Part shown: positions 1 to 16,919 of the stretch, one piece after another
Layout: the number at the start of each line of letters is the position of its first letter
Position numbering within the stretch: the first letter of the stretch is position 1
The notes under the pieces: model-generated
What the model was told of the DNA's origin: nothing
The model's input: only the letters and a program-made list of their open reading frames with translations
The model's database searches: none
Position numbers and translations under genes: made by a program
Assembly: GCA_001792895.1 (NCBI GenBank)
Contig: MARA01000016.1
Coordinates: 124,001 to 188,000 of the forward strand
DNA length: 64,000 nucleotides
Source: Lentinus brumalis
Taxonomy: Eukaryota > Basidiomycota > Agaricomycetes > Polyporales > Polyporaceae
Direction: 5' to 3'

Positions 1-407
1 GATAAATGGGTTGAGCCTGGTATATTTTCGAGAGGACACCGGCACAATATGCGAGGTGGATACGGACTTCAAAGCCTCAAGTTCTTTCCGGGCGTAGCCC
101 TATCACGGCAGATGAGCTCTCAGGGCACTCAGTAAGCATTCCAGACATCTAGTCCGTTTGTATGAAGAGGAGGCGGCATCGCTGGCGCGGGACCGGATCA
201 GTACGTTACAGACACCACGGATCATGTATGTAACGAAATCAAGCTTCACGGACCGGACACGCAGTACTAGAAACATGTCTGTCATCAGCATCACGAAACA
301 CGACTGGGACAGAGACGGCCTACGTACCTGCACCCCAAGTTGGAGGTTCGTGCCTGTGCGCGATCATGTCAGCATCTCGACGGGACGCATAGCGTAGTAT
401 GGCTGCA

Positions 408-3400
408 TCACTCACACTGCGAGTTGATCTCGGGGTTCCACTTGATGAACTGCGCGAGGGTGATGCCGAACTTGGTGTCGATCACGCCGCAGTTGTCGCC
501 GGAGGCGACGGTGTAGTACGCCTTGCAGCCTTGGCCCGGGGTGAGCGTCCCGGAACCCGTCGGTGCTGCAGCCGACGTGGTCGTGGTGGTCGTGGTGGGT
601 CCGGATGCGGCTGGTGGAGAAAGTACGTGAGTAAGTATGTGAGAAGTCAGGCTGAGACACGTCGGCAGATGAACGAGGAACTCACGTCCGGCGACGCAGT
701 AGAGCACTCCCGCGACGATGTTCGAGCCTGCAGTGCACAGAGGTCAGGGGGATGATCCTGTGGCAGGGAGACCATGGACGGTACGGACAGGCGCTGTTGA
801 TTTCCGGGTTCCAGGCTTGGATCTGCGTGAACGTGATGCTGAACTGCGACTCAATGGCCGGACAAGAGTCACCGCGTCTGAGACTATGCATCAGCTCACG
901 TCCTACCAGGGACAGTTACGTGTCCGCGAGACGTACTGGACCGCATAATAGGCGGTGCACCCTTGCGAGGGCGTTAGGGTTTCCGTTCCGATTGCAGCTA
1001 CACGAGCATGATTGCATCAGCGCTCTATTCCACTCTACTTATAACCAAACGAGCTTGACTTACGTCCCGCAACACAGTACCCCAAACCAGGCTGGATGTT
1101 TGCGCCTAAAAGCGAGTCAGAACGCCCGCGGACATCGAAGTCAGACGATTCGCCTACAGTTGGAGTCGATCTCGATGTTCCACTCGCGGATCTGGTCGAA
1201 CGTGATGCCGAACTGGTCCTCCATGACGGCGCAGGTGTCTCCCGATCTGCAGAATATTATGATGCTCAATGCGCAGGCTCGCTGTAGGAATAGGGCGCTT
1301 GACTTACTTCACGGTGTAGTACGTGTCGCATCCCGTGGTGCTGTGAGGACGTCCGTCAGGCTATGGCTATGGCTGGCTGAAGCGGAGGAAACTGTTTGCG
1401 TACATGGTACCAGGGGCGATCGGCGAGCTCGTGGGCGGCGGGCCGCTCACGCAGTATGCGAGCCCCAGAACGATGTTCGTGCCTGGTGGGATAGCCACAG
1501 TAAGATCATGCACAGTATTTGACGCAGCAATCACATAGACGTACACTGTGCGTTCCTATGTCGGTCGTGTTCGTATCAATACCCATGCGGCTTCTGGGCA
1601 ACGAAAGCTATGTACGTACACCTCGGGGTTCCATGTTCGGAAGTCGGAGAGCGAGATCGAGAACATCGTCTCGATCACCGTGCAGGTGTCGCCCGACCTG
1701 TTACAACCTCGTCAGCGACGCAGGGATGACTGTGCGCACTGGGACGCCGCGCTTACTTGATTGTATAGTACGCTAAGAGGGGACACTGCGTCAGATGATG
1801 GTTCGTCTCTATTGAGACTCAGGCCACTCACTCGTGCATCCCTCCGTGATTGTGCCGTTAGCGACATTGGTAGGTGCAGGTGCGGCGGAAGTCGTCGTTG
1901 TGGTCGTCGTTGTGGGACCACTAGGCGAAGTTGTGGGAGGGAGCGTGATGGTCGGCGTATACGAGACGTAGGGGCCAAAGACGCAATACGACAGGCCGAC
2001 CTGTCCGAAGTTGTGAGTGAGTGCTATGTCAGTATCCCGAAGGTCGAGGCTTACCTGAATGTTGGCGCAATTCGCATCGATCTACATGCAGATCGAGTAA
2101 GAATCGCAGCGCAGGGTGCGGAGTGCGAAACGACATCACCTCAGGATTCCACGCGCGGAACTCCTCGTCCCGGAGCGAGAAGACCGTCTCGATGGCAAGA
2201 CACGTATCGCCTGGGCAGATAGCAATCAGACGCACTCAGTGACGACTGCTGCAGAGGGCGACTCACCAGGTTGCACTGTGTAATCTGTCGGGGAAGTTAG
2301 CATGCTATCGATCGCCAAAAAGCAGTTCGAACGCGCTTACATTGCAAACAGGAGTCCTCGCCGACCGTTCCCGGAGCAATCGTCGGCGCAGGGGGCGCCG
2401 TGGAGGGATATGACTGCTGTGGGCTCGCAGTGACCGGGGTGACGGTCATGTTCCCTGACGCGATGATCGAGCCTGTTCCGACAGGGAAATCGCCATCTAT
2501 CGTGACGGGTACCAAGTTAGCTGACGATCTGTGTAGGAAAGTATGGCTAAGTACCGACGACAGAGATGAGGCTGGCGCCGGTCGTGGTCACCGTGAACGC
2601 CGATGTCGAGGTCGTATCTGTGAGACATATGTGAGAAGTCGAGCGTGCGATCACGCAGAAGTTCAATCTGGGAGCTTACTGCCAAAGACGGCCACGCAGT
2701 ACTCGAAGCCGGCGAGGAGGTTGCTACACTGGAGTGTGGAGGTGAGGAGTTTCAACCTCAGCTGGACTTGATAATAAGGACGAAGGGCAGGGACGTACAT
2801 CAGAGTTGACGTTCGGGTTGAGCTACCGACCGTGGTTGTTAACGAGCGAGTGGACAAAGAGGGAAGGATGGCATACCGCGTAGAATGTGTCATTTGTGAT
2901 CTGGAAGATTTGAAGGATCTGTTGAGAGTCTCTATCAGTTATCGCACGTCCCCGAAGGTATTGTGAGCGCAGTTACCTGGGGGCAGGTATCTGCCAGTGT
3001 ACGCCGCCAGTCAGCAATGTCAGGACATCAGTATCGACATAACCACGCGAACCTCCAGTTACGGCTTCGTACCACATCCCACAGATAGAACGATCCGACC
3101 CAGGCGCGATAGGTCCGGTGGGTATGCTATCGACGCGCTCGAATCAACAGGGCTCACACTGATGTCAGGAACTGTCACTCACGCAAGTGCAGTAGGCGTG
3201 CCTAGATGAGCCCATGATGTGGCGTTCAGTGATTCGTACATATGTGCATAAGCTTATACCCCGCACCTGAGATGGGCGGAAGCGTGGTCGAAGGCTGATA
3301 CCCGCCTCCCGGAGGTCCGACGCAGATGCCTTTGCCGACCTGGGTGTCGATGTTCGTGCAGTAACTGTTGATCTGCCTGACAGGTGGTACGTGCCGGTGA

Positions 3401-4962
3401 GACAGGCTCTCGGCAGGAGAGAGACTTGACTCACGGGTTCCAAGCGAGAAGCTGGCTCCACAGGATACCGTTTGCTTGGTATATGCCGACGCATGTATCG
3501 CTGGACTTGACGGTGTACAGGGGGCACGACCCGGACAGGCAGATCTTGCCGCCAGCAGCGGGCAGCTTCGTGCAGGGCATGTCGAGGCCGTTGATGGCTA
3601 TGAGCTGGTCGTATGAGAGGCTGTTCGCGGATGCGATGGACGTGCATGTGTCCCCGGACTGGGCGAAGAGTATAAGTTCGGCGTAGTGGGAATCTGGAGA
3701 AGAACCGACCTTGACCGTGTACGTGCCATACACGCAGCTGTCCGCAGAGGCAGGTGTGAGAGTGGGCGAACTATGAACAGCGGGTCAGTCAAGGCAAGCC
3801 GGAGTCTTGATTGGACCTACGCAGTGACGTTGTAGGAGGTTCCGTTAGTTGCGGAGGGACTGTCACTGTTGAACAAGAGCCCAGCGGGTATCGTGTTGTT
3901 AAACGACTTCCCGCACGTCGACTGTACGGTCATCCAGTCTGACACACTATGGAATTGCGTTGAGAAGCCGCGACATGATGACGTAATAGACCAGCTCACA
4001 AGCTCGCATCCCACCCGAAGGGACTGGACATCTGGACATTGAGGGCGTCGAGGGTGCAATTCTGACAAAGTTGCGCCGGCGGCTCGTCTGTGATGGACGT
4101 GTCCGAGGTTGAAGGGGAGCTCTGGAATCACGGCGTTGAGTCCATCATATCAGGATATAGAGAACGGCAGGGGTCGCAAAGCAGACAAGATGCGAGGTAT
4201 GGCGAGTAACGACGGATATGTGCCCTGCCGAGTACCTGGCGCGGTGACTCTGTGTCTGAGACCTTGGATTGCTATGCGCCGTACTGGCCTCAACCTGAGG
4301 TATACCCATACACCCGAGTCCGTGACTGTATGAGCCGCATGCGCAGGCTCGAGGTCAGGGTCACATCGCGGCGTAGTAGCGCCCTGTGCCGTTCTCGATA
4401 TGACGAAAACGAAACTCGAAGCTGTACCTGAGCGATGTTCACACAGTAGTCTGAACCTTGCGTTATGCAGGACTGAAAAGACATCCTGAAGTCAGCTCCA
4501 ACGTCTGAACTCTATGACGGTCGGCTTACAAGATTCCAGATGTAGGCAAGATATTGAAAGCTGGAAGTTGTACGAGTTAGCCTGCGGCAGATAGAAATGA
4601 GGACGTACTCACGGAAAAGAGGCAACATAGCTGGTGTCGCCAAGGATGTAGGGCCAACCAGGACAGGCGGCATCGACTTTGGCTGCGGTAGACACGAGCG
4701 AGTTGTAACACGTAGCAGAGCAGAGGGTATTGAGATCGGCAGCGGTGAGATTGGAGATGGGCGCCGCAGAGCTCGGAACGGCGAAGAGTATGGTGTTTGG
4801 ACACTGCACCGCCGAAGCGAGAGCATCCGCGCACGAAGATGAACTTGGGAGGGGGTAGATATCAGACGCATCTGCGAAAACTGCAAAGGTAGCCTGGCTC
4901 TGCGCTGCTACCAGCCCCACACGGCTCAGGAGTAGGATGGGTAGGAGTGCGTACGCCATCAT
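408..4962 (-). CDS. Secreted multi-LysM chitin-binding protein (about 8 LysM modules)
   Basis: The start at 4962 opens a signal peptide (MMAYALLPILLLSRVGLVAAQ). A Cys-containing N-terminal region follows (exon to about 4609, more near 3820-4130), as in fungal multi-LysM proteins. LysM modules then recur: near 3640-3730 (SGDTCTSIASANSLSYDQL), 3431-3520 (SSDTCVGIYQANG, LLAWNP), 2890-3020 (QILQIFQITNDTFYA), 2130-2300 (GDTCLAIETVF, AWNPEV), 1620-1700, 1165-1260, 790-880 (GDSCPAIESQF, WNPEINSAC) and 430-520 (GDNCGVIDTKFG, WNPEINSQC). Thr/Ser-rich linkers separate the later modules. LysM domains bind chitin oligomers, so the product is probably secreted and binds chitin in the hyphal wall or hides fragments. 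It is divergent from the chitinase at 5836. The stop at 408 may be false: the sequence there also reads as a GTGAGT donor, and a possible last exon (LAYCAGV) lies at about 30-90. Exact splicing was not resolved. Confidence 0.82.
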
Positions 4963-5835
4963 TGCGCGGGGCAGATGCTGAGCACCATCGCGGTGAGCAC
5001 GACTTGGATGGCAATCTCTAGTAGGACGTGCCCCAGGAACACGACACTCCTTATGAGTACCCGGATCCTCAATCAGACGGCATCGCGACCTAAGCTGGAG
5101 CGCCTCGCAGTGCAGAGCGCCCCCACACGCATCACGGAGGTACAGGAACATGCGAGCGCGATGGCGGAGTAATTGAAAGAAGGACTTCAAACGAACCTCC
5201 TCAGCGCGACCACGGGCGTCTATGTGCATTGCTGGCACAGCTGACCGGGACTTTGTAAGTACGTACGTACACCTCAACCACCATCCACTCTCCCGCCGCC
5301 CGCCGCCCGCTGCGCCGTGCGCCCAACAGAAGTTTCACCTACTTACTCCATACTCTGATAGTCGTTCTACAGAGATGGCCCTTGAAAATACCGCCCACCG
5401 AAGCCCTGTTAGCACACGCCTACGTTCAGCCCGACGCTTCCCGTGGAGATGGCCCTTGTACTGGACGCCTCTGGACGCCTGTCGAAGTCAAGTAACCATG
5501 TGCACAGGTCGATGCCATTTTATGCACCGCGCTCAGCAATCAGTCTAGCTCAGACTCCGTCCCTGCTTGCCGTACATACTAGTACCGTGACGCCGCCGTT
5601 CTTCGGACTCACCGGAAAGAGGGCCCGCGCGACGGACTAGCCGGAGGACCCATGTACGGTTCTTCACTCAATACAGACCATCAACCTTCCGGAACACTCT
5701 TCCTTTGCACGGCGCGAATCAGACCAGCCTCCGACAGCGCCGTATTGCCCTGAGATGTCTTAAAGCTGCTGACCATATGCATGGGGATCGAGGACTTTTC
5801 GCATATCTCAGCTGCTCCAGCAGCGGAGACCCACC
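4963..5835. promoter_or_regulatory. Divergent intergenic region between LysM gene and chitinase
   Basis: This 873-bp region separates the start codons of two head-to-head genes, so it must hold both promoters and both 5' untranslated regions. I see no clear TATA box or named operator. The chitinase start has a favourable context (CCACCATGG at 5831-5839). Co-regulation of the two genes is inferred from geometry only. Confidence 0.6.
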
Positions 5836-8800
5836 ATGGCACGTAAACGTCTCACTCTAGTTAGAGTCCTCATCTCTCTCGTCCTCCCAGTTATCTTTCT
5901 GGTGGCTCTCTTCGCTGACACCGCAGAAGCCGTCAAATCCGAGTATCGCAGCCCCGCTGCTCGCCGCTTCCAGCGTCGCCTGGAGCTGGCTAAACGCAAA
6001 GAGCATGCCTCGCAGCGCACTCGTTCCTCTCCGATCCCTCGGTCACCCAGACCCCCGCGATCAGTCTTTCCCTCGTCCTCTCTCCTCGACGTGAAGGCTT
6101 CCTTTGGTCACGGCAATCATACTCGCAAGTTCAGTGCTCGGCAACTCGACAATGAATCGTGCAATAATATCACCATCACCCCTCCGGGCTTTGACGGGAG
6201 CTGTTCCATCACTCAGCCTTGTCCTAACGGTGCATGCTGGTAATTGTCAACTGCTCCCCTCACATGTTTTCGGGCATTCTCTGACGATCATCGTCTCGTT
6301 CAACAGCGGCTCGTCCGGTTTCTGCGGTTACGGTGCGTACTTCCAGCATTCCTAGAGCTTCCTAGACTAGGTTTATCAATTGTTCTTCATCCGTCTAGGC
6401 GGCGAGTTTTGCGGCGATGGTTGCACTAGCAACTGCAACGCAGTCGCCGAATGCGGCCCCAATTCAGCTCCTGGACACGAGAACTGCCCTCTGAATGTGT
6501 GCTGCAGCAAGTTCGGCTTCGTACGTACAGCCAGTATAGTCTGCAGTGGCTCTAATCATCTGACCTCCCTGCATCCGTGTTCAGTGCGGTTCAACGGATG
6601 ACTTCTGCGGCGCAAATTGCGTCGGAGACCATTGCGGCTCGCCATCGATACCGACCGGTGTCAACTCGGCCGTCACATCCAGGTTGATTGGTTATTACGA
6701 GGTGCGTGCTAGCTACTTTCGCGTTGGTGAGCGGCAGGAGCTGACATTGTGATCAGGGATGGTACGTCGCTCCGATGTCGGCCGCAAATTTGACGGGAGC
6801 TGGCCTGACGTGACATGATTCGCAGGGCATCGGCGCGGCCGTGCGATCAGTGGTATCCTGACAACATTCCGTCAGCTGGCTACACGCATCTGAATTACGC
6901 TTTCGCGTCAATCGACCCGGTGAGTTCCTGGATCGACTAGAGCTCGTCGGGCGTAACGCTCACGCGGAAAGCGCCATAGACGACATTCGCGGTGGTACCG
7001 GCCTCCGCCTCCGATGTTCCGCAATACAAGGCGTTCACCAACCTCAAGCAGTCGAACCCGAACTTGAAGACGTACATCTCCGTCGGCGGCTGGTCTTTCA
7101 ACGACCCTCCGACGCAACATGTCTTCAGCGATATGTCGTCGACTGACGCGAACCGACAAGCATTCGCGAACTCGCTCGTGAAGTACGTCCGCTGCCTAGG
7201 CCTTGCCTCACATACTAAATCCTATCTCCAGCTTCATGGTTACCTACGGGTTCGACGGAGTGGATATGTACGTCCCTGCACCCTCTTGAATACCTTCTAG
7301 CGCTGACCCACATCCCTCAGCGACTGGGAATACCCCGGTCAGTTGCCACCTCGCCGCGAGTGAGAGACAAGGTTGCTGATATAGCATCATCTCCCAGTTG
7401 CCTGCGAACGTGGTGGTGTACCTGAAGACACGGCAAACATGGTCGCGATGTTTAAGACCCTGCGGGATACTGTGCGTACCACACATCGTATCAACAGTCT
7501 CCTCTCTCTAACATCCTCCCGTAGTTCTCAGCCTCCGGTCACACGTTCGGGCTCACCTTCACGGCGCCGTCGTCGTACTGGTACCTGCAACACTTCGACC
7601 TCCTCGGACTCCTCTCCTACGCGGACTGGGTGAACCTCATGACCTACGACCTGCACGGCGTATGGGACGCGAAGGACGTCTTCATCGGCAACATCGTGCA
7701 GGCGCACACCAACCTGACCGAGATCGAGCAGAGCGTCCAGCTGCTGCAGCGCGTCGGCGTCCCCCTCGACCGCATCGTCCTCGGACTCGGCTTCTATGGA
7801 CGCTCATTCCAGCTCACCGATCCGTCGTGCTCGACACCAGGATGTGCATTCAACGGCCCGGCTCCCGGAGGACGTGAGCGTCGCATCGCGATCCTTCTGC
7901 GTACATATTCACTCATCGCCCTTTAATGGCCAGCGTGCACTGCCGCTGATGGCACCCTCAGCTTCTCGGAGATTCAGAATATTCTGTTGACGAACAGCCT
8001 GTCTCCCGTCTACGACAAGACCGCGCAGGTCAAGTACCTTGTCTACGATACGGTACGTCTTGAGTTCGTCACCTATCTCGAGTCGCACTGACACCATACT
8101 GTGTATAAGAACAACTGGGTCAGTTATGACGACAAGGACACGTTCACTGCCAAGATCGACTGGGCAAAGGGAGCGGGCCTCGGTCAGTCATATGCTCTTA
8201 CGTCACGAGGAGCTTGGTGTTGACACCCGACCAGGAGGATTGATGGTCTGGTCGGCTGATCAGGACGACTTCAAGTGAGTCCGTTAACCACCTATCCAGT
8301 CACCTCATGCTGATGCCAGTGTTTGCAGCGCAACGGTCCGTGCCGCGGCATGGTCTGGTCTAGCTGAGATGTCGCTAACTTACCGTATTGACAGGCTCTC
8401 TCTGCTGTGCTAGGGCAGAATGCGACCGGTGCGTGTAGAGTATATTCGTCCTGAGAGGGCGCGAAGTCGCTCATAGCTCGTGCTTGCAGACATCATCCCA
8501 AAGTCGCATGACCTGAACTCCAAGGACGGGAAGCAGTGTGTCCAACCAGGATGCGGACAGACGTGCCCTTCGGGATACGTGCAGATGACCGGTACGTTGT
8601 GTCTTCCCGTCCGATCAGTTTGCCAGTGTGTCCTGACTTGTGTACGCAGATGTTACTGATGGAAAGTTGGGTGAGTTTCGGCCGACGGTCAGCATGAGTA
8701 TAAGGACCTTGACTTATGTTCCTGTGTGTAGCTGACCCCACGACGGGCTGTGCGAAGGGCTCTGGGAACCCCGTTTGTTGTCCTGTCGAGTGAGCATACC

Positions 8801-11800
8801 TGCGTCCTCGCTTTTGCAAGTCGCATTTCCTCACTCTCACGTAGCCAAGTGCCGCAAAACTGCCAGTGGCGGGGAACGGGTGGGTGGTCTGTGCTCCTAT
8901 GCTCTGACGCTTGAGCTTACGCCGCCTTTCAGCCCCGGTCTGCAACGGAGTCTGTGAACGTATGTGTCTGGGTGTATGCGACGTTTCTTCGGTGCTATAC
9001 CTGATCACATCATTGTAGCGGGTGAGATCACGCTAGCGACCGACTCCTGTAAGTGTTTTCCGCGTCAATTCGTAAGGTATAGAGCGATGGCTGACTTATC
9101 TTCGATTCAATTCAGGGGGAACGGGGAAGAGGTGCTCGTCCGGACACAAGGTGTTCTGTTGCCAGTCGGGTCTCACGGCTGACCAGATCTCGCGTGCGAC
9201 CAATTGTCAATGGTGAGTTCTGCACGTCTTTCTTGCCATCGATCGCGCGGCTGACTCTCTCCATAGGTGTACGTAGTCCCTCTTCTTTCGCGAGATCCTC
9301 GGCTGATAGTTTGCCTGCGCGAGGTAGACGGCAAGCAGTCGCATAAGTGAGTTATCAGCTGATCGAGTGGGTTTCATCAGGCACTGACGTTCGCTTCACG
9401 CGTATAGCTGCAACGACAATGTACGTATCTTTTCCTGGAGATTCTGCGTGTTACTGACATGGAAACGAAGGTCTGCCCTCCCGGGACGTTCACCAAGGAC
9501 AGAGACTGTACGAGAGTTGCCTGTGTCTGCTGGTATGGTAGCCTGGTCACTGACAGCTACGGGCAGATTATGGGGACACGAACATTTTCCACGCTTGCTT
9601 CATGCAAGAGAAGAGTCTATGCTGGTAGATCGCCCATTATGAGGAATGCGGATGCTCACGCTGACAGTGTGTCATATCCTGTAGCGACCCGCCGGACGGT
9701 GCCACTACGACCTCTCCGTTCGATGTCGTACGTGCATCGCGCCTGCGTTAGGATGCCTCACCCGTGGCTGACTCTCCTTTACAATGCAGGACGATCTCTT
9801 CCCCAACCCGCCGTCAGATGGAGACCTGAGCTGGGATCTTCAAGACGACCCCATCGACGAGAATGCGCCCAACGGAGGTGCCGACGCCGATGACAACTCG
9901 TTCGGCCTGATTGCCATGGATGTAGGTTCTTCCTCACTATGCACGTAGTCATCCTCAACATTTCTTCAGGGTCCCTCGAACCTCCTCTCATCCGTGGCGC
10001 CGGCGAGCGATTGGGTAGTCGTCGGGTGCACAGGAGAGACGACTGGTATTCAGAACGTCATCGCGTTCTGCAGGAAGAGCGAGAACGACAAATCTTCGGG
10101 GTGCTCCGCAGTGTTCGAGGGCGGTGCGCAGAACACGTAGGTCACCCTCAGATATATATGCCCATCGCCTAGCTGACTGTGATGACAGTATCGTCAAGCT
10201 TCCCTCTGGCTGCGGCGGACCTTATGCACGACTACACAGCCTGGAAGTGAACAGCTCGCTCGTCGTCCCGAGCTCGCATGCCTCCCTCAAGCCTGCGTCA
10301 AACCCGGTCTACGACCTCCAGTTTGACTTCGAGTTCGGTCGCATGTACGTGTTGCTTCATCCGCGCTTGAGACGACGTCATGAGAACTTGTATCTTCAGG
10401 TCCGAGACACGGGCGGCGTCCGACGGTTCGGTCCTGCTTCGGGTAGATGCTACCACTCTCCCTGGCTACTGGGCCGAAATTGACACGGCAGGTGAGTCTT
10501 GGGGTTATGCGAATCTTTTCGTATGGTCGCGAATCATGGGTATCTTGTAGATCCCAACTCGCCTGCTCGTCGAGAGCTCGAGGAACGTTGGTTTGGTGCA
10601 TTCGGGGACTGGCTCTCTCGCCTCAACAAGGTCAAGTCAAACACGAAGGCCGACCTCGGCATGTCGAAGTCGTTCCAGTCCGTCCTCTACTCGGCAAGTC
10701 AGTTGTGCTCTAGCGATGACGGCACCACGACCTTCGCTTCCTCGATGTCGTTGACGGCTCAAGGCAGCGCTGACTACAACGTCGAGTACGGTATGTTGTC
10801 GCCACAGGCTCGCGATTTCTTGATGAATTGCTGCTCAACCTTCAACCTCACCCTTCCCTCATCGCAGGGTTCTATCTCGAAGGGACCATATTCCCTCCCG
10901 GGATCAATCAGGCATACGTCTACGTCTCCTCGCACGGTTCGGCTACCGTAGGACTGCAGCTGACGGGACGGGCGTCAGCAAGTTACAATAGCGGGAAGAT
11001 CCCGATCATTCCGCCGGTGTACTGGCCTGGTGTGAGTCAACTACGTACCTACGCCGACATCGTTCAAGTAACTGATTGTTTATGTTAGCTCTCATATCCT
11101 GGCATTGGTGAGTCCTTGGGATGAGCACGTGTAGCAGCTGATTGACAAAGGCTGCCTGGCATAGTATCCATCGGGCCGTCCCTGAATATCTGTGAGCGCA
11201 AATCTCTCCACTTATCTCGACATGCACTCATGACTGGCTAGATGGGCAACTCCAAGGATCGCTCACCCTCTCCGGGGATATCGGCGCAACCGTAACATAT
11301 CCTCTCCCGGAATCGTACGTATTTCGATCCTTGTGTGGATGCTCGTCTCACCAAGTATATCAGACATGTGTCACTCGGGATAACTGGTAGCGACCCCAAT
11401 CAGTTTGACGAGGCTGTGGATGCGGATGTCAGCACCATCCCCGCAAGTAAGCCATGTCGTGGAAGAAACGATCCTCGCTCTGATCATCCCCTCAGCATTC
11501 AACGTCGCGCCTACATTTGACGTTTCCCTCGGCGGTTCGCTCAGGTGACGTTCAGTCGCACGCATTCTTGACGTGTCCACTGACCTGGAATATATCCAGT
11601 GTACATGCTATCCCTGAAGCCTCGCTCGTCTTCGACCTACTTCCGAACACCATCGTGCATGTCAACGCTCGGGGTAATGAGCATCATGTTTTATACCTCA
11701 TAGGTCCGGGCTGATTGCATGCTTCACCTCAGCTTACATTTCTTTGGACGGGTCGGTCACTGCCTCGTTTGACGCGGACCTCTCCGGAGTTGAAGCAAGC

Positions 11801-14208
11801 GTAGTTGCGGGGATTGATGCTACTGCTGTGAGTTGACAACTTGTCATTGTGCCTGCATATTTGGCTCTGACTCTCCGAAAGGGCGTCGAAGCATCCGCGG
11901 GCTCCAAGTACACTCTGGGTCCCTTCTCCCTCTACCACACCTCCCTTACACTCTATCAGTCAGTATCCTCCCTGACCGTCTTCGTTCCTTCCTTTGTTGA
12001 CAACGGTATAGGCAAACTTTGACCTTCGGAGGGAGCGAGCGGCGCAGCGTGCCGTCATATCTGCATGACTACATCGAGAGCGGCATTTTCGCCGGCTCTT
12101 CCGAGTATGACAACTTGCACAGGAATACGTCTTTGGACCCCTACACGTCCTACACTTCCCATGGACACACACTCGACAGGCGCAGTATTATCAGCGGCAC
12201 GCTGACATGTCCGAAGACTGTTGATGGCGACGGATCAGCGTCCTGCGACCAGCAACTCGCCGACGATGACGTAGCGGATGCTGACCCCGACGATACGACC
12301 GATGAGCTCTTCCGACGCTCCTCCGATATTGAAGGTCTCCTGGAGCCACGAACGCGTGAGTATAGTCCCAAGTTTCCATTCGTATAGACTTTGACAAACG
12401 GCGATTGTAGTGGAGAAGCGTGTCAAGGTCATTAATTGCCCAGGGTAAGTTGGGTTCAGTCGGTATGCCAGCAGCCCACAGCTCACCGCGAGCCCTCCAG
12501 TCCAAGCCTTACGCCGCCGAGTACGTTGCGCGACCATCGTGATCACCGTCAGGATGGTCATGTTCACGTCGCTTCCACATGTTACAGACTACAAAGGGAC
12601 TACCATCTCCGGCTACTGGCACTTCGCTCAACCGTTCAAGTGAGTTCCAAGCACAGCTGCTTTGAGTATATCGCTCTTACCACTTCGCGAAATACAGCCC
12701 AACTAGTTTCGCTGCAACCAGTACGTATGCGTCTGTCCCCTCAGTAAGGCTGTTTGACCTCAACTCCCATGATCCCCAGACGCCGGTAAGAATGTTCCGG
12801 TGAGCTGAACCGACTAGTTGTGCAGGAAGTGCCGTCTCACTGTCTTCGTGTCACACAGGGAGCGAAATGGGCTAGGGAACACGTCTATGAGGTATTGCCT
12901 AAACCCTATCTGTAGTAATACTCGTACTAACAGATGTCTTTGTAGGTCCAGGCAAGTGATTGAGCAGTGTATGGCATATGCGGAGTCAACGGTGACTGAG
13001 CGCGATCGTTCAACCCCAGCTTTTGACCCAGTTCATGAGCGTAAGTGTCGGACAGTCTCTGTTCTCTGTTAAGCCTCATGCTCACCACTATGTAACAGGA
13101 CGTAATTGCGCAGAACTTCGCCAATAACGCAGACTTCTGCACGTGGATCAAGACCTTCGTGTTCAAGAGCGTGCAATTTGGGCCGAACACCAAGTTCCAG
13201 CTGTCAGCTCTCCTTTCTGCGACAGAACCCAAGGGAACGGAAATGATGCCAGGTGTGTCGAGAGCATGATCATGGCCGTCTCCCCTAGAGATCATCACTC
13301 ATGCGTGTTCATTTCTCTAGCATTGTTTGCAGATTCAAACTCAGCAAAGTGAGTACGCTTATCATTCCGATAGCGAACCGCTCTCACCGTTCTACAGGCA
13401 GGCAGTATGTGTCGCGATGTCTGCCGATTTGCGTGCTAGCTGTTCGCTGAATCCCGACTTTGCAGTTCATTTCTGGGAAGCGAAAGTTCAGAAAGCGTAG
13501 TACGCTCCAGAACGCGGACCCCGGAAACGTTCTATACCTCCTGCGTGCAGCAGCGCACTCCGTCGACTACATGAATAGCAATGACATCCGGAAGGAATTC
13601 CAACGTGTCGCCCGGCTGGTGAGTTATATTCCCGCCTAGGCAATACAGCAACTGAGTCAGCTTTTAGGTCGAGCAGCGGTGGATTGACTTCTTCAAACTG
13701 TACAATACCGTGCAGGGAACCAACTACGATGTCAGCACGGCCTATGAGTAAGTATCATATACCGGGCAGCGTGATGTGGATATTGACCGGAACTTTTTCA
13801 GGACTTGGCTCAAGGTGTGTACCCGTTGCGAGTTCTTGTATCGCAAAGTATCCACCAACATGTCTTGCCGTTTACAGGGAATTCTAGGTATGCCTTGTCA
13901 GCCCATGGCCACGATTCGTGCGATTGACTCACATATACGCAGCCAACTACGGACCGAACGCGAACAGCTTCTTCAATGATGCAGTGAGCGTATTGTCCAG
14001 TCAAATAGCCGCAAATCAAGGTTCTGTTGTGGTCGGAGTACCCAAGGACGTGAGTATACTGATCGCTGTAGGGAGGTTCTGGCAGGCATTGACAGTACTT
14101 CATCTGCTTCCTCAGTGCTCCAGCACGAAGGGTCCATTCACGCAAGCTGATCTCGACATTCTTGAGCGGTCCCTCCCCACGGGCGGAATCACCTGGACTT
14201 ACCCGTAG
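5836..14208 (+). CDS. Killer-toxin-like GH18 chitinase with hevein domain and long C-terminal extension
   Basis: A large gene with many exons. The N-terminus is a signal peptide (LISLVLPVIFLVALFADTA) followed by a basic stretch. A hevein-type (ChtBD1) chitin-binding domain lies at 6430-6650, with CCSKFGF and, after an intron, CGSTDDFCG. The GH18 barrel runs from about 6690 to 8275: SVGGWSF near 7080, the catalytic DGVDIDWE split by an intron (7268-7320; Glu codon 7328-7330), LMTYDLHG near 7640, LGLGFYGRSF near 7790 and MVWSADQDD near 8243. Cys-rich modules follow (8500-9250; CGQTCPSG, CCPVE), then a beta-rich domain (10560-12000) and a helical C-terminal part (13100-14208) that includes EHVYEVQ near 12870. 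The product should hydrolyse chitin outside the cell. The architecture is that of subgroup C chitinases, which resemble the chitinase subunit of yeast zymocin-type killer toxins. No gamma-type toxic subunit is visible nearby. Internal exons of the extension are approximate. Confidence 0.85.
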
Positions 14209-14637: not shown

Positions 14638-16919
14638 ATGTCAGAAGGCACCGATGGGGAAGCTATGGCAGCCCGGCTCGCTCAAGAGCTAAACGATGCA
14701 GCGGCAAGCGGCAAGCCCAGCAAGGTGTGTTCGCTTTCCATGTGCATACTAGTACTGATGTTGGTTGATCCGTACATAGGATATCTCGGATTTGCTCACT
14801 CGCATCATAAACGAGCTCGTGTGGACCGCTGCGCTCTCTCAGACAGAGGTGAGATAGCTTGCAATAATGTCGACTTATCGCCGCATCGTTGTCAATAACA
14901 CTCCTCTCTCTAGAGCGGGCAGGCACTTGAATTGGCCATCCGTACTTGTACGACATCTCCCGAGCGCAGCGGCGATACGGAGCTAAGAGCCTTCGCCATG
15001 AGTGTTCTACACTCTCTTTCAGACCAGCTTCGCGAGGCGGACATCCGGGAAACCGAGGCTCGCTGGTGGCATACCGAACCTGTGCCTGAGGACGCGGTCG
15101 AACGCATCACGCTCGAGTTCCGCGACACCACCGCCGAACACAAGGCCTGGCCCGTGACGGAGGTCTGGCCGTCCGAGCTTGTGGAATGCGCGCCATCCGA
15201 AGCATTCGAGCGTGTGGCCCAACGCTTCCGGGTCCGTGCAAATTGGCAACATCGCCACCCCTTCATGCCCTCCCTGAAGTTCGATGTTGTGCTCAAGACG
15301 GGCACCGTCTCTCTGGACTCGCTCGGCGCGCGACCTATCGCAGACGTACTGGAGGATCTGGCCGAAGGACGCGTCGTACCGTATGTGCGCAACGACGAGG
15401 ACAACAAGAGCGTCTCCTCCCAAACACCGGCGCGGTACTTCAAGCTCTGGGAGCGCACGCTACCTTCATGGTGCAAGACGCCAGACCACTGGATCGAGCC
15501 GACTCCCCCGCCTGGGTTCATCGAGAATCCGGAGACAGCTCCAGTACTCCGGGAGCAGTACTACAAGAAAATCCCGACCCTGCACGTACCGGGCAGTGGC
15601 CTCCACATCGTGCCGTCTGCGACGAGGCCGGACATAATCTCGCGTGAGCTCTTCATCCCAGTCGAAGATTTGGCCCCGAATATCACGCGCGTATGCGCTC
15701 TTGACCGCGAGGCGGACCTTGTCCCGCACGACGCGCATCTCGTCCCGGGCAAGGATATCACTCTCGACGAAGCGCGTGCGCTGCTCGGGCGCGTCGTCCA
15801 GTCGTCGATGGAGCCACGGCCGGACCCTGCCTCGCCGCCGCTGGGGAAGCGCAGGAAGGTGAACAAGTACGCGGCTCAGAAGCTTGGGCTTGCGTGGGGG
15901 CTGGAGACCGGCTCGTATGGGAAGCCCGCATGGCTGCTTTGCGTGGAGTTCCACGGTATGAACAGCGAGTATGCGCTCGACTTGTCGGGCGAGAAGCGGC
16001 AGTACGAGGACGTTCGATCGCCAGTTGCTGTCAGAACCGTCGCATGCGCCTGGGTCGGTGCGGCGGTCTTTCCGGCGGATAAGAAGGCGGTGAAAGGCGC
16101 CGTGGAGAAGAAGGTGGAGCAGGATGCTGGTACCATATCGGGGCGGGCACTTCCAGGGGTGGAATCCGAGAAACGAGTCCTGTCCTACGACGACTGGTAC
16201 AAGAAGACGAAGAAGTTGATTCGCGCACTCAACAAGAAAGCGCCGCTGGTAGAGGTACGCACTTTCGCCATAAATATTGCACTGTGTCACGGCGAATATT
16301 GACGCCGCTATCGAACCAGGTTGGTGCAGACGGCGCATTCGTAGGAGGCGACCTCGGCACTTCAAAGGGCGAGGATGACGAGTTCGAAGCTGAGATAACT
16401 GGCGCAAAACCCGGCATCTGGCTGGCATCCGTGAGTCCTGCGGAACCTGAGGACGGTGACGAGGATGGGACGGGAGATGAGCCCAAGCTCATCCGCTTTG
16501 TCTGGGTGCGCGACGGCACGGTGAACTACGATGCACTCCCTTCGCGCGCCAGTGTCCAAGCTCCGCCTGCGGACCCTGCGGCGAACTGGGAAGTCGTAGC
16601 ATCGTTCAGTGTCGACTCTGGCACGATATGCCTATTCTCGAAGCACGCTCTCGAATCGATATTGGCCACAGGGACGGACCGCGAGGCAATGCTTGAGGCC
16701 TTCATCGACGACGACGAGGGCACTAACGTCTTCGTGCCGAGCGGCATAGTGTGTGAGTCCTCATCTCTCTCTGTGCGGCGGCGTCTCGTACCTAAATCGT
16801 GTTGTGCAGTGAGCGGCAACGACGGAAGCTACGAGGTCAAAGCTCGGCGGGACACGGAGGGACGAATCGTCGAGCTCAATCTGCGCACATGTAGCATCGC
16901 AGACATTGCCAGGTTCTGA
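14638..16919 (+). CDS. Unrecognised cytosolic protein with weak DUF4241-like C-terminus
   Basis: I do not recognise the full protein. Exons read cleanly in frame: 14638-14724, 14780-14848, 14914-16254, 16320-16752 and 16810-16919, joined by four introns of 55-65 nt, giving about 682 residues. There is no signal peptide or membrane segment. The N-terminal part begins MSEGTDGEAMAARLAQELND. The central part (14914-16254) is soluble and mixed, with a basic PLGKRRKVNKYAAQK stretch near residue 340. The last 120 residues contain FSVDSGTICLFSK and SGNDGSYEVKARRD, which recall the VDSG...GDGSYPVY pattern of DUF4241; this is a weak resemblance from memory. The 3' end abuts a DUF6533 fragment on the other strand. 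Confidence 0.75.

What the first reader, a model, noticed from the sequence alone, without database searches (positions are those of the whole stretch)
408..14208. Head-to-head LysM protein / killer-toxin-like chitinase locus
A multi-LysM chitin-binding protein and a hevein-GH18 chitinase with a killer-toxin-like extension share an 873-bp divergent promoter region. In ascomycetes such as Trichoderma, subgroup C chitinases are reported next to LysM protein genes. Finding the same geometry in a basidiomycete suggests a conserved two-part module: one protein degrades or penetrates foreign chitin, while the other binds or shields chitin, perhaps the producer's own. The pairing is seen directly; the shared function is inference.
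Basis: partly seen in the sequence, partly recalled or inferred. Interest (0 to 1): 0.75.

Follow-up and report, generated by a model that had tools for sequence, protein, structure and literature searches.

The report
Paired chitin-cutter and chitin-binder fungal genes
Two fungal genes that sit back to back, one for a large chitin-cutting protein and one for a chitin-binding protein, lie together in several mushroom-forming fungi and occur twice in this genome, which suggests that they work as a team, perhaps as weapon and shield.

Summary
A second intact divergent pair lies on contig C76 (70.5% and 79.0% protein identity); no further locus of either kind was found in the genome. Among ten other Agaricomycete species whose protein hits include both relatives, nine have them on one contig, and four of these are direct neighbours by locus tag. 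Such pairs are known in ascomycetes, where deleting a LysM partner (Clonostachys) leaves hyphae less protected against chitinases; I found no report for basidiomycetes. Weapon plus self-shield is the best-supported reading but was not tested here. New: an unannotated third gene adjoins both pairs, on opposite sides, and is the only other gene found shared by the two regions. The chitinase C-terminal domain has about 2.5 times the dN of the catalytic half.

The parts
246..4962 (-). LysM protein gene: hydrophobic N-terminus, cysteine-rich N-terminal domain, 8 LysM modules, 858 aa, 33 exons; stop TGA at 248-246
   Evidence: gene model; 8 LysM stretches, E 7.2e-59; homologs; 852 of 858 aligned residues identical to Polyporus arcularius P0121
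4963..5835 (.). 873-bp divergent intergenic region between the two start codons
5370..5401 (+). 32-bp stretch 81% identical and collinear with the C76 intergenic region; candidate shared regulatory element
   Evidence: blastn E 2e-4; 1 of 500 randomised versions of the window gap scores as well
5447..5458 (+). second exact copy of the 12-bp motif AGATGGCCCTTG (first copy at 5373-5384); one copy with C to T in the C76 gap
   Evidence: genome-wide 13 occurrences against 10 for the backward control, so the motif alone is not distinctive
5836..14208 (+). killer-toxin-like chitinase gene, 1635 aa, 61 exons: hydrophobic N-terminus, 2 CBM18, GH18 with intact DGVDIDWEY (residues 332-340), cysteine-rich part, beta-rich extension with a weak DUF7223 match, C-terminal domain (residues 1356-1635) behind KR at 1354-1355
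14638..16919 (+). gene X, 676 aa, 5 exons, no Pfam match above cut-off, no hydrophobic N-terminus by eye; starts 429 bp after the chitinase stop; homolog next to the second pair on C76

Best explanation
This is a conserved, divergently transcribed two-gene module for fungus-fungus contact, present twice in this polypore. Shown: gene models, intact catalytic motif, chitin-binding modules in both proteins, a second copy of the pair, conserved linkage in several Agaricomycetes, and low dN/dS in both genes. Inferred: both proteins are secreted together under shared control from the 873-bp gap. The chitinase binds wall chitin through CBM18, cuts it with GH18 and so opens the wall of a competitor for its large C-terminal part, much as the alpha/beta subunits of yeast zymocin are described to breach the wall. 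The LysM protein coats the producer's own exposed chitin and limits self-damage.
For: Two intact head-to-head pairs in one genome; the own-genome searches find each family at these two loci and nowhere else, both paired (such searches give lower bounds). Linkage in other species: 9 of 10 on one contig, consecutive locus tags in Ganoderma sinense, G. adspersum, Fibroporia radiculosa and Phlebia brevispora. Co-occurrence: the LysM family is found in 10 of 13 basidiomycete species with a window-clade chitinase and in 3 of 35 with other listed chitinases only (Fisher p 1e-5, not corrected for kinship; counted; test). dN/dS about 0.07 and 0.08 (dS near saturation). Shared promoter stretch. [quoted passage not shown]
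Against: No expression or biochemical data for this fungus. In the Clonostachys study deletion of lysm1, which the passages do not describe as a chitinase neighbour, raised protoplast release too, so the protective effect is not special to the neighbour. Trichoderma Tal6, also a LysM neighbour of a subgroup C chitinase, inhibits germination of Trichoderma spores (PMC4392113, passage). In Exidia glandulosa the genes lie on different contigs. The two intergenic regions share no exact 10-base word, and the 12-bp motif is not enriched genome-wide. The KR before the C-terminal domain in the window copy is ER in the C76 copy. Whether Clonostachys LYSM2 belongs to the same LysM family was not tested.
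Confidence: 0.5

Rival explanations
1. A joint attack machine: the LysM protein binds foreign chitin and raises the local action of the chitinase, with no self-protection. Both serve nutrition or mycoparasitism.
For: Both proteins carry chitin-binding modules; the Trichoderma partner Tal6 is inhibitory to spores (PMC4392113, passage).
Against: In Clonostachys the deletion phenotype of the LysM partner is reduced hyphal protection (PMC7176902, passages).
Confidence: 0.25
2. Own-wall remodelling: the pair trims and then covers the producer's chitin during development or autolysis, without a role in antagonism.
For: The lysm2 deletion in Clonostachys shows accelerated mycelial disintegration (PMC7176902, abstract passage).
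Against: The chitinase has a large extra C-terminal domain that changes fast (50.0% identity and dN 0.43, against 70.5% and dN 0.21 for the whole protein), which would be unusual for a housekeeping remodelling enzyme; this is an inference.
Confidence: 0.15
3. Passive inheritance: the genes were neighbours in an ancestor and stayed so without functional need; the second pair is a segmental duplicate.
For: Gene X is also shared by the two regions, as expected of a duplicated segment. In the LysM tree the polypore sequences group together, as plain descent would give.
Against: No other shared gene was found between 114 kb of C45 and 100 kb of C76 (tblastn of open frames of 60 aa or more, E up to 1e-4; one identical 32-bp DNA stretch besides). 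Linkage is seen in 9 of 10 species that include Polyporales, Russulales and Agaricales, and the LysM family is rarely found without this chitinase clade (3 of 35 species).
Confidence: 0.1

Closest known systems
Trichoderma tal6/tac6 and other tal genes next to subgroup C chitinase genes (Gruber 2011 and Seidl-Seiboth 2013, as cited in PMC4392113, of which passages were read)
   Same: A multi-LysM protein gene next to a subgroup C chitinase gene; Tal6 has seven LysMs, the window protein eight.
   Different: Ascomycete; homology of Tal6 itself with the window protein was not tested; the window chitinase has no LysM match.
Clonostachys rosea lysm2/chiC1 (PMC7176902, passages read)
   Same: LysM gene adjacent to a killer-toxin-like chitinase gene, both induced on chitin; the shield role was examined there by deletion.
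   Different: LYSM2 has two LysM modules and 464 aa; the window protein has eight and 858 aa.
Fungal GH18 subclade C-I (Goughenour 2020, PMC8042737, passages read)
   Same: CBM18 with GH18, often no detectable LysM; [quoted passage not shown]
   Different: The passages read do not describe a LysM neighbour gene.
Kluyveromyces lactis zymocin alpha/beta subunits (PMC2614207 and PMC8715425, passages read)
   Same: GH18 and chitin-binding modules; a homolog of the window protein is named killer toxin subunits alpha/beta by its source (P0109).
   Different: No gamma toxin gene was looked for; the KR before the C-terminal domain is not conserved in the C76 copy; no sequence comparison with zymocin was made.

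Membership tests
GH18 chitinase, catalytically competent | GH18 domain with the DxxDxDxE motif | tested here: met
   Pfam PF00704 full length 1-317, E 5.3e-72; motif at residues 332-340 in the window copy and 330-338 in the C76 copy
Subgroup C / killer-toxin-like chitinase | CBM18 next to GH18 and a long C-terminal extension shared with known members | tested here: met
   2 CBM18 stretches; C-terminal domain finds ascomycete and basidiomycete relatives, mostly at 20-35% identity outside the window clade; a relative named killer toxin subunits alpha/beta is among the 120 listed
Subgroup C / killer-toxin-like chitinase | Grouping in a tree with subgroup C and apart from A and B | not tested
   The tree holds only relatives found with this query; no A or B members were put in
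Subclade C-II | LysM modules inside the chitinase | tested here: not met
   No LysM match in the chitinase at E up to 1
LysM effector protein | Several LysM modules and no catalytic domain | tested here: met
   8 LysM stretches, no enzyme family at E up to 1
LysM effector protein | Secretion signal | tested here: inconclusive
   Hydrophobic N-terminus by eye; no signal-peptide program was at hand
LysM / subgroup C chitinase gene pair as in Trichoderma and Clonostachys | Direct neighbourhood of the two genes | tested here: met
   two loci
LysM / subgroup C chitinase gene pair as in Trichoderma and Clonostachys | Co-expression | not testable with these tools
   No expression data
Zymocin-type killer toxin | Kex2 site that splits alpha and beta parts (recalled feature) | tested here: inconclusive
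   KR at 1354-1355 in the window copy and at the same place in P0001, P0002, P0003, P0005; absent in P0009; ER in C76
Zymocin-type killer toxin | Separate gamma subunit with tRNase activity | not tested
   No search was made for it

The most novel reading that the evidence does not exclude
The module has three parts: a wall-breaching chitinase that carries a fast-changing C-terminal effector domain, a LysM shield outside the cell, and gene X, a protein without a recognisable secretion signal that would act inside the producer, for example as an immunity or processing factor. The LysM/chitinase pair has flipped as one unit relative to gene X between the two loci (or gene X has moved), yet the three stayed together while no other neighbour is still shared.
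Probability: 0.12. Interest if true: 0.8.

Novelty: new member of a known kind. Interest (0 to 1): 0.5.

Why it matters
The pair of a LysM protein and a killer-toxin-like chitinase has been discussed for ascomycete mycoparasites. Its conserved linkage in Agaricomycetes, and the homology of the LysM partner with a LysM protein that neighbours such a chitinase in the ascomycete Penicillium herquei, point to a module with a wide reach in Dikarya. That makes the shield idea testable in fungi that fight each other in wood. Gene X, if linked elsewhere too, would be an entry to an intracellular partner that the papers I saw do not mention.

Tried and rejected
Fold of the extension: AlphaFold2 on P0011 (mean pLDDT 70.3) gave a confident GH18 domain and a long-stranded beta region (residues about 789-1054, block pLDDT mostly 60-84). 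The PDB searches listed only chitinases and chitinase-like proteins in the 50 rows shown. In the viral library 7 of the 11 matches with E up to 0.001 are GH18 proteins and 4 are fish-virus glycoproteins at rmsd 16-28, which I do not trust. The extension is thus untested by fold; no family is excluded. AlphaFold2 on P0113 gave no usable model of the C-terminal part (pLDDT mostly under 35).

Other species' DNA: a scan of viral contigs with P0001 found no relative. The collections at hand that give gene order hold no fungal genomes as far as their descriptions say, so orientation outside this genome stays unknown.

Promoter: the 12-bp motif is not enriched genome-wide (13 against 10 in the backward control). 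The shared 32-bp stretch is a candidate only. Word sharing: 7-, 8- and 9-letter words exceed the random pairs (reached by 10, 4 and 23 of 500), 10- and 12-letter words are not shared.

Considered and rejected: that C76 is the other allele of C45. Protein identities of 70.5% and 79.0% and near-saturated silent sites speak for old paralogs. That one copy is a pseudogene: all four gene models are open from start to stop.

Papers seen in passages only: PMC4392113, PMC8042737, PMC7176902, PMC6773873, PMC13039781 (a GH18-CBM5 chitinase, not this family), PMC3689799, PMC8097845, PMC2614207, PMC8715425. PMC8097845 reports four LysM proteins of Ganoderma boninense as down-regulated on palm; no pair is mentioned in the passages. 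PMC2614207 (2008) called C-I and C-II unique for filamentous ascomycetes.

Literature searches for the pair in basidiomycetes. Judged by the listings, the starts of abstracts and the passages above, none reports it. Subscription journals and bioRxiv are mostly not covered. DUF7223: 0 papers.

Rows dropped or not seen: one search lists 120 of 1357 proteins; each scored about 7,990 candidates; so absences are weak. The chitinase tree used 43 of the 120 listed relatives plus the 2 copies; species not in the tree were put in or out of the window clade by identity. The LysM tree used 44 relatives plus the 2 copies. In one search, 30 of 45 candidates were scored. The chance figure for linkage assumes one gene of each kind per 30-Mb genome and would be higher with several chitinase genes. 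For Taiwanofungus the names come from different strains though the contig length agrees, and P0139 (Peniophora) is a 1341-aa entry with foreign domains.
Full report
Where it is. The window is C45:124001-188000 of a 53.4-Mb genome in 136 contigs.

The two genes. A spliced alignment to homologous proteins gives a LysM gene from 4962 down to 246 and a chitinase gene from 5836 to 14208, both open from start to stop. The gap is 873 bp. The LysM protein has 858 aa and 8 LysM stretches. In the Protein Data Bank its modules match best entries 5bum and 4pxv, named 'Chitinase A'; PMC4392113 (passages) discusses a chitinase PrChi-A whose LysMs are characterised, and that these entries are that protein is my recall. 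The chitinase has 1635 aa with two CBM18 stretches and one GH18 domain, an intact DGVDIDWEY motif, a cysteine-rich part, a beta-rich extension (predicted on the relative P0011) and a C-terminal domain behind a KR pair. A weak DUF7223 match marks the extension (E 0.009, below cut-off).

A second pair. The same arrangement lies on C76: chitinase 66707 down to 58258, LysM gene 67307 up to 71728, gap 599 bp. Exon numbers agree: 61 and 61 for the chitinases, 33 and 33 for the LysM genes. Identities are 1142 of 1619 and 676 of 856 aligned residues. In the whole genome the LysM protein finds 28 of its 29 matches on C45 and C76; the last (C60) is weak, E 5e-4. The chitinase finds 39 of 43 matches there; one further match is another GH18 gene (C49) and three are extension-only stretches on C60 (30 of 45 candidates were scored). 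CBM18 gave 2 matches, one at each locus, the C45 one just below cut-off. Three other loci carry LysM matches (C85, C86, C104), and none of the 23 GH18 matches lies on those contigs. These searches go exon by exon and give lower bounds.

Selection. Between the two copies dN/dS is about 0.066 for the LysM gene and 0.08 for the chitinase; silent sites are near saturation, so these are rough. Within the chitinase the C-terminal domain stands out: 50.0% identity and dN 0.427, against 74.9% and 0.173 for the N-terminal part with CBM18 and GH18, and 76.6% and 0.151 for the extension. The linker before it is also fast (59.8%, 0.31). Its dN/dS, about 0.17, still speaks for constraint.

Linkage in other species. 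Contig lengths and locus tags allow a test. Ten other Agaricomycete species show both the LysM protein and a chitinase of the window's clade. In nine the two lie on a contig of the same length: Trametes cingulata, Ganoderma sinense, G. adspersum, Peniophora sp. CBMAI 1063, Flammula alnicola, Phlebia brevispora, Fibroporia radiculosa, Taiwanofungus camphoratus and Infundibulicybe gibba. The exception is Exidia glandulosa (Auriculariales), whose LysM entry is only 544 aa. The nine include Polyporales, Russulales and Agaricales (for one member each). About 0.16 of 10 would be expected by chance with one gene of each kind in 30-Mb genomes. Consecutive locus tags show direct neighbours in G. sinense (05257/05258), G. 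adspersum (004812/004813), F. radiculosa (02619/02618) and P. brevispora (g427/g426). Counting species in the listed rows, the LysM family occurs in 10 of 13 with a window-clade chitinase and in 3 of 35 basidiomycete species whose listed chitinases are all of other clades (Fisher p 1e-5; not corrected for kinship; clade by tree where placed, otherwise by identity). Two of those three, Mycena sanguinolenta and M. filopes, have the genes on different contigs; the third, Pluteus cervinus, on one. Species with a LysM hit but no listed chitinase (such as P. arcularius, Lentinus brumalis, Pilatotrama ljubarskyi) cannot be judged.

Ascomycetes. The third search used an alignment of ascomycete and basidiomycete LysM proteins. 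Of four ascomycete species present in both lists, Penicillium herquei (N7540_011216/011217, consecutive) and Podospora didyma share a contig; Xylaria telfairii and Neofusicoccum parvum do not (for the last, strains may differ). The Podospora contig has 7 Mb, so chance is not negligible there. In any case the LysM family itself is shared between the phyla: the window protein alone finds Xylaria palmicola at E 7e-62 over 98% of its length.

Trees. The window clade of 16 chitinases (with both copies) is separated with SH-aLRT 100 from the other basidiomycete and the ascomycete relatives in the tree. In neither tree are C45 and C76 sisters: C45 pairs with Trametes cingulata and P. arcularius, C76 with Trametes sanguinea and Lentinus brumalis, so the duplication may be older than these genera; some of the forks are open. 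Pluteus cervinus falls among ascomycetes in both trees, as if the pair had moved together. These are quick trees with SH-aLRT support only, and a few rows are long.

Promoter. The two gaps share a collinear 32-bp stretch at 81% identity (window 5370-5401); 1 of 500 randomised versions of the window gap does as well. Shared 8-letter words number 24 against 10.8 on average in random pairs of like dinucleotide make-up (reached by 4 of 500), shared 10-letter words none. A 12-bp core occurs twice in the window gap and once in the C76 gap, but it is not enriched genome-wide (13 against 10 in the control). This is moderate evidence for shared control.

A third gene. Gene X (window 14638-16919) has four loci in the genome: C45 beside the chitinase, C76 beside the LysM gene, C76 some 12 kb further, and C92. 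A comparison of 114 kb of C45 with 100 kb of C76 by open frames finds the pair and gene X and no other shared gene (0 other matches; one identical 32-bp DNA stretch besides). Because gene X lies beside the chitinase in one place and beside the LysM gene in the other, the pair has inverted as a unit or gene X has moved. It has no Pfam family above cut-off and only two matches at E 0.5 among solved structures. A single old segmental duplication would explain the shared linkage, so it may be one coincidence, not two.

How it most likely works. Established knowledge (recalled): GH18 with this motif cuts chitin; CBM18 and fungal LysM bind chitin. Published: next to a killer-toxin-like chitinase gene, the LysM gene lysm2 of Clonostachys rosea is co-induced on chitin and its loss reduces hyphal protection (PMC7176902, passages), although loss of lysm1 does so too; Trichoderma Tal6 inhibits Trichoderma spores (PMC4392113, passage). 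Inference: in this polypore the chitinase opens foreign walls for its C-terminal domain and the LysM protein shields the producer. The step from pairing to function is not shown here.

What is known and what is new. Subgroup C-I chitinases in six Agaricomycete orders are reported (PMC8042737, passage), and the pair is reported in ascomycetes. Conserved pairing in Agaricomycetes, a second copy of the pair, the shared gene X and the fast C-terminal domain I did not find in print in the searches. It is a new member of a known kind, well supported as a conserved module, with an untested mechanism.

Noticed in passing
C60:2783420-2784773 (+) and C60:2627920-2628576 (-), loci L019 and L020: Stretches like the killer-toxin-like extension also occur away from any GH18 match (25-30% identity, E 1.4e-12 to 1.7e-7); one piece matches DUF7223 just above cut-off (27.8 against 27 bits). 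It looks like a reused domain.
   Followed up: partly
window 9267-9268; C76:63337-63338: Both chitinase models need a 2-nt exon (GT) to keep the conserved WYG; the surrounding AGGTGTACGTAG is identical in both. A possible micro-exon or recursive splicing; no transcript data.
   Followed up: partly
P0096 and P0171 (Pluteus cervinus): Both the chitinase and the LysM protein of this basidiomycete fall among ascomycetes in the trees and lie on a contig of the same length: possible horizontal transfer of the pair as a unit.
   Followed up: partly
window 4122-4427: The LysM gene has a 306-bp intron where the C76 copy has 48 bp.
   Followed up: no
C92:31387-33791: A 2457-column DNA match (83%) to C45 covers just gene X and a little upstream sequence; no other match to C45 was found in the 30 kb of C92 read. 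Gene X may disperse as a single gene.
   Followed up: partly
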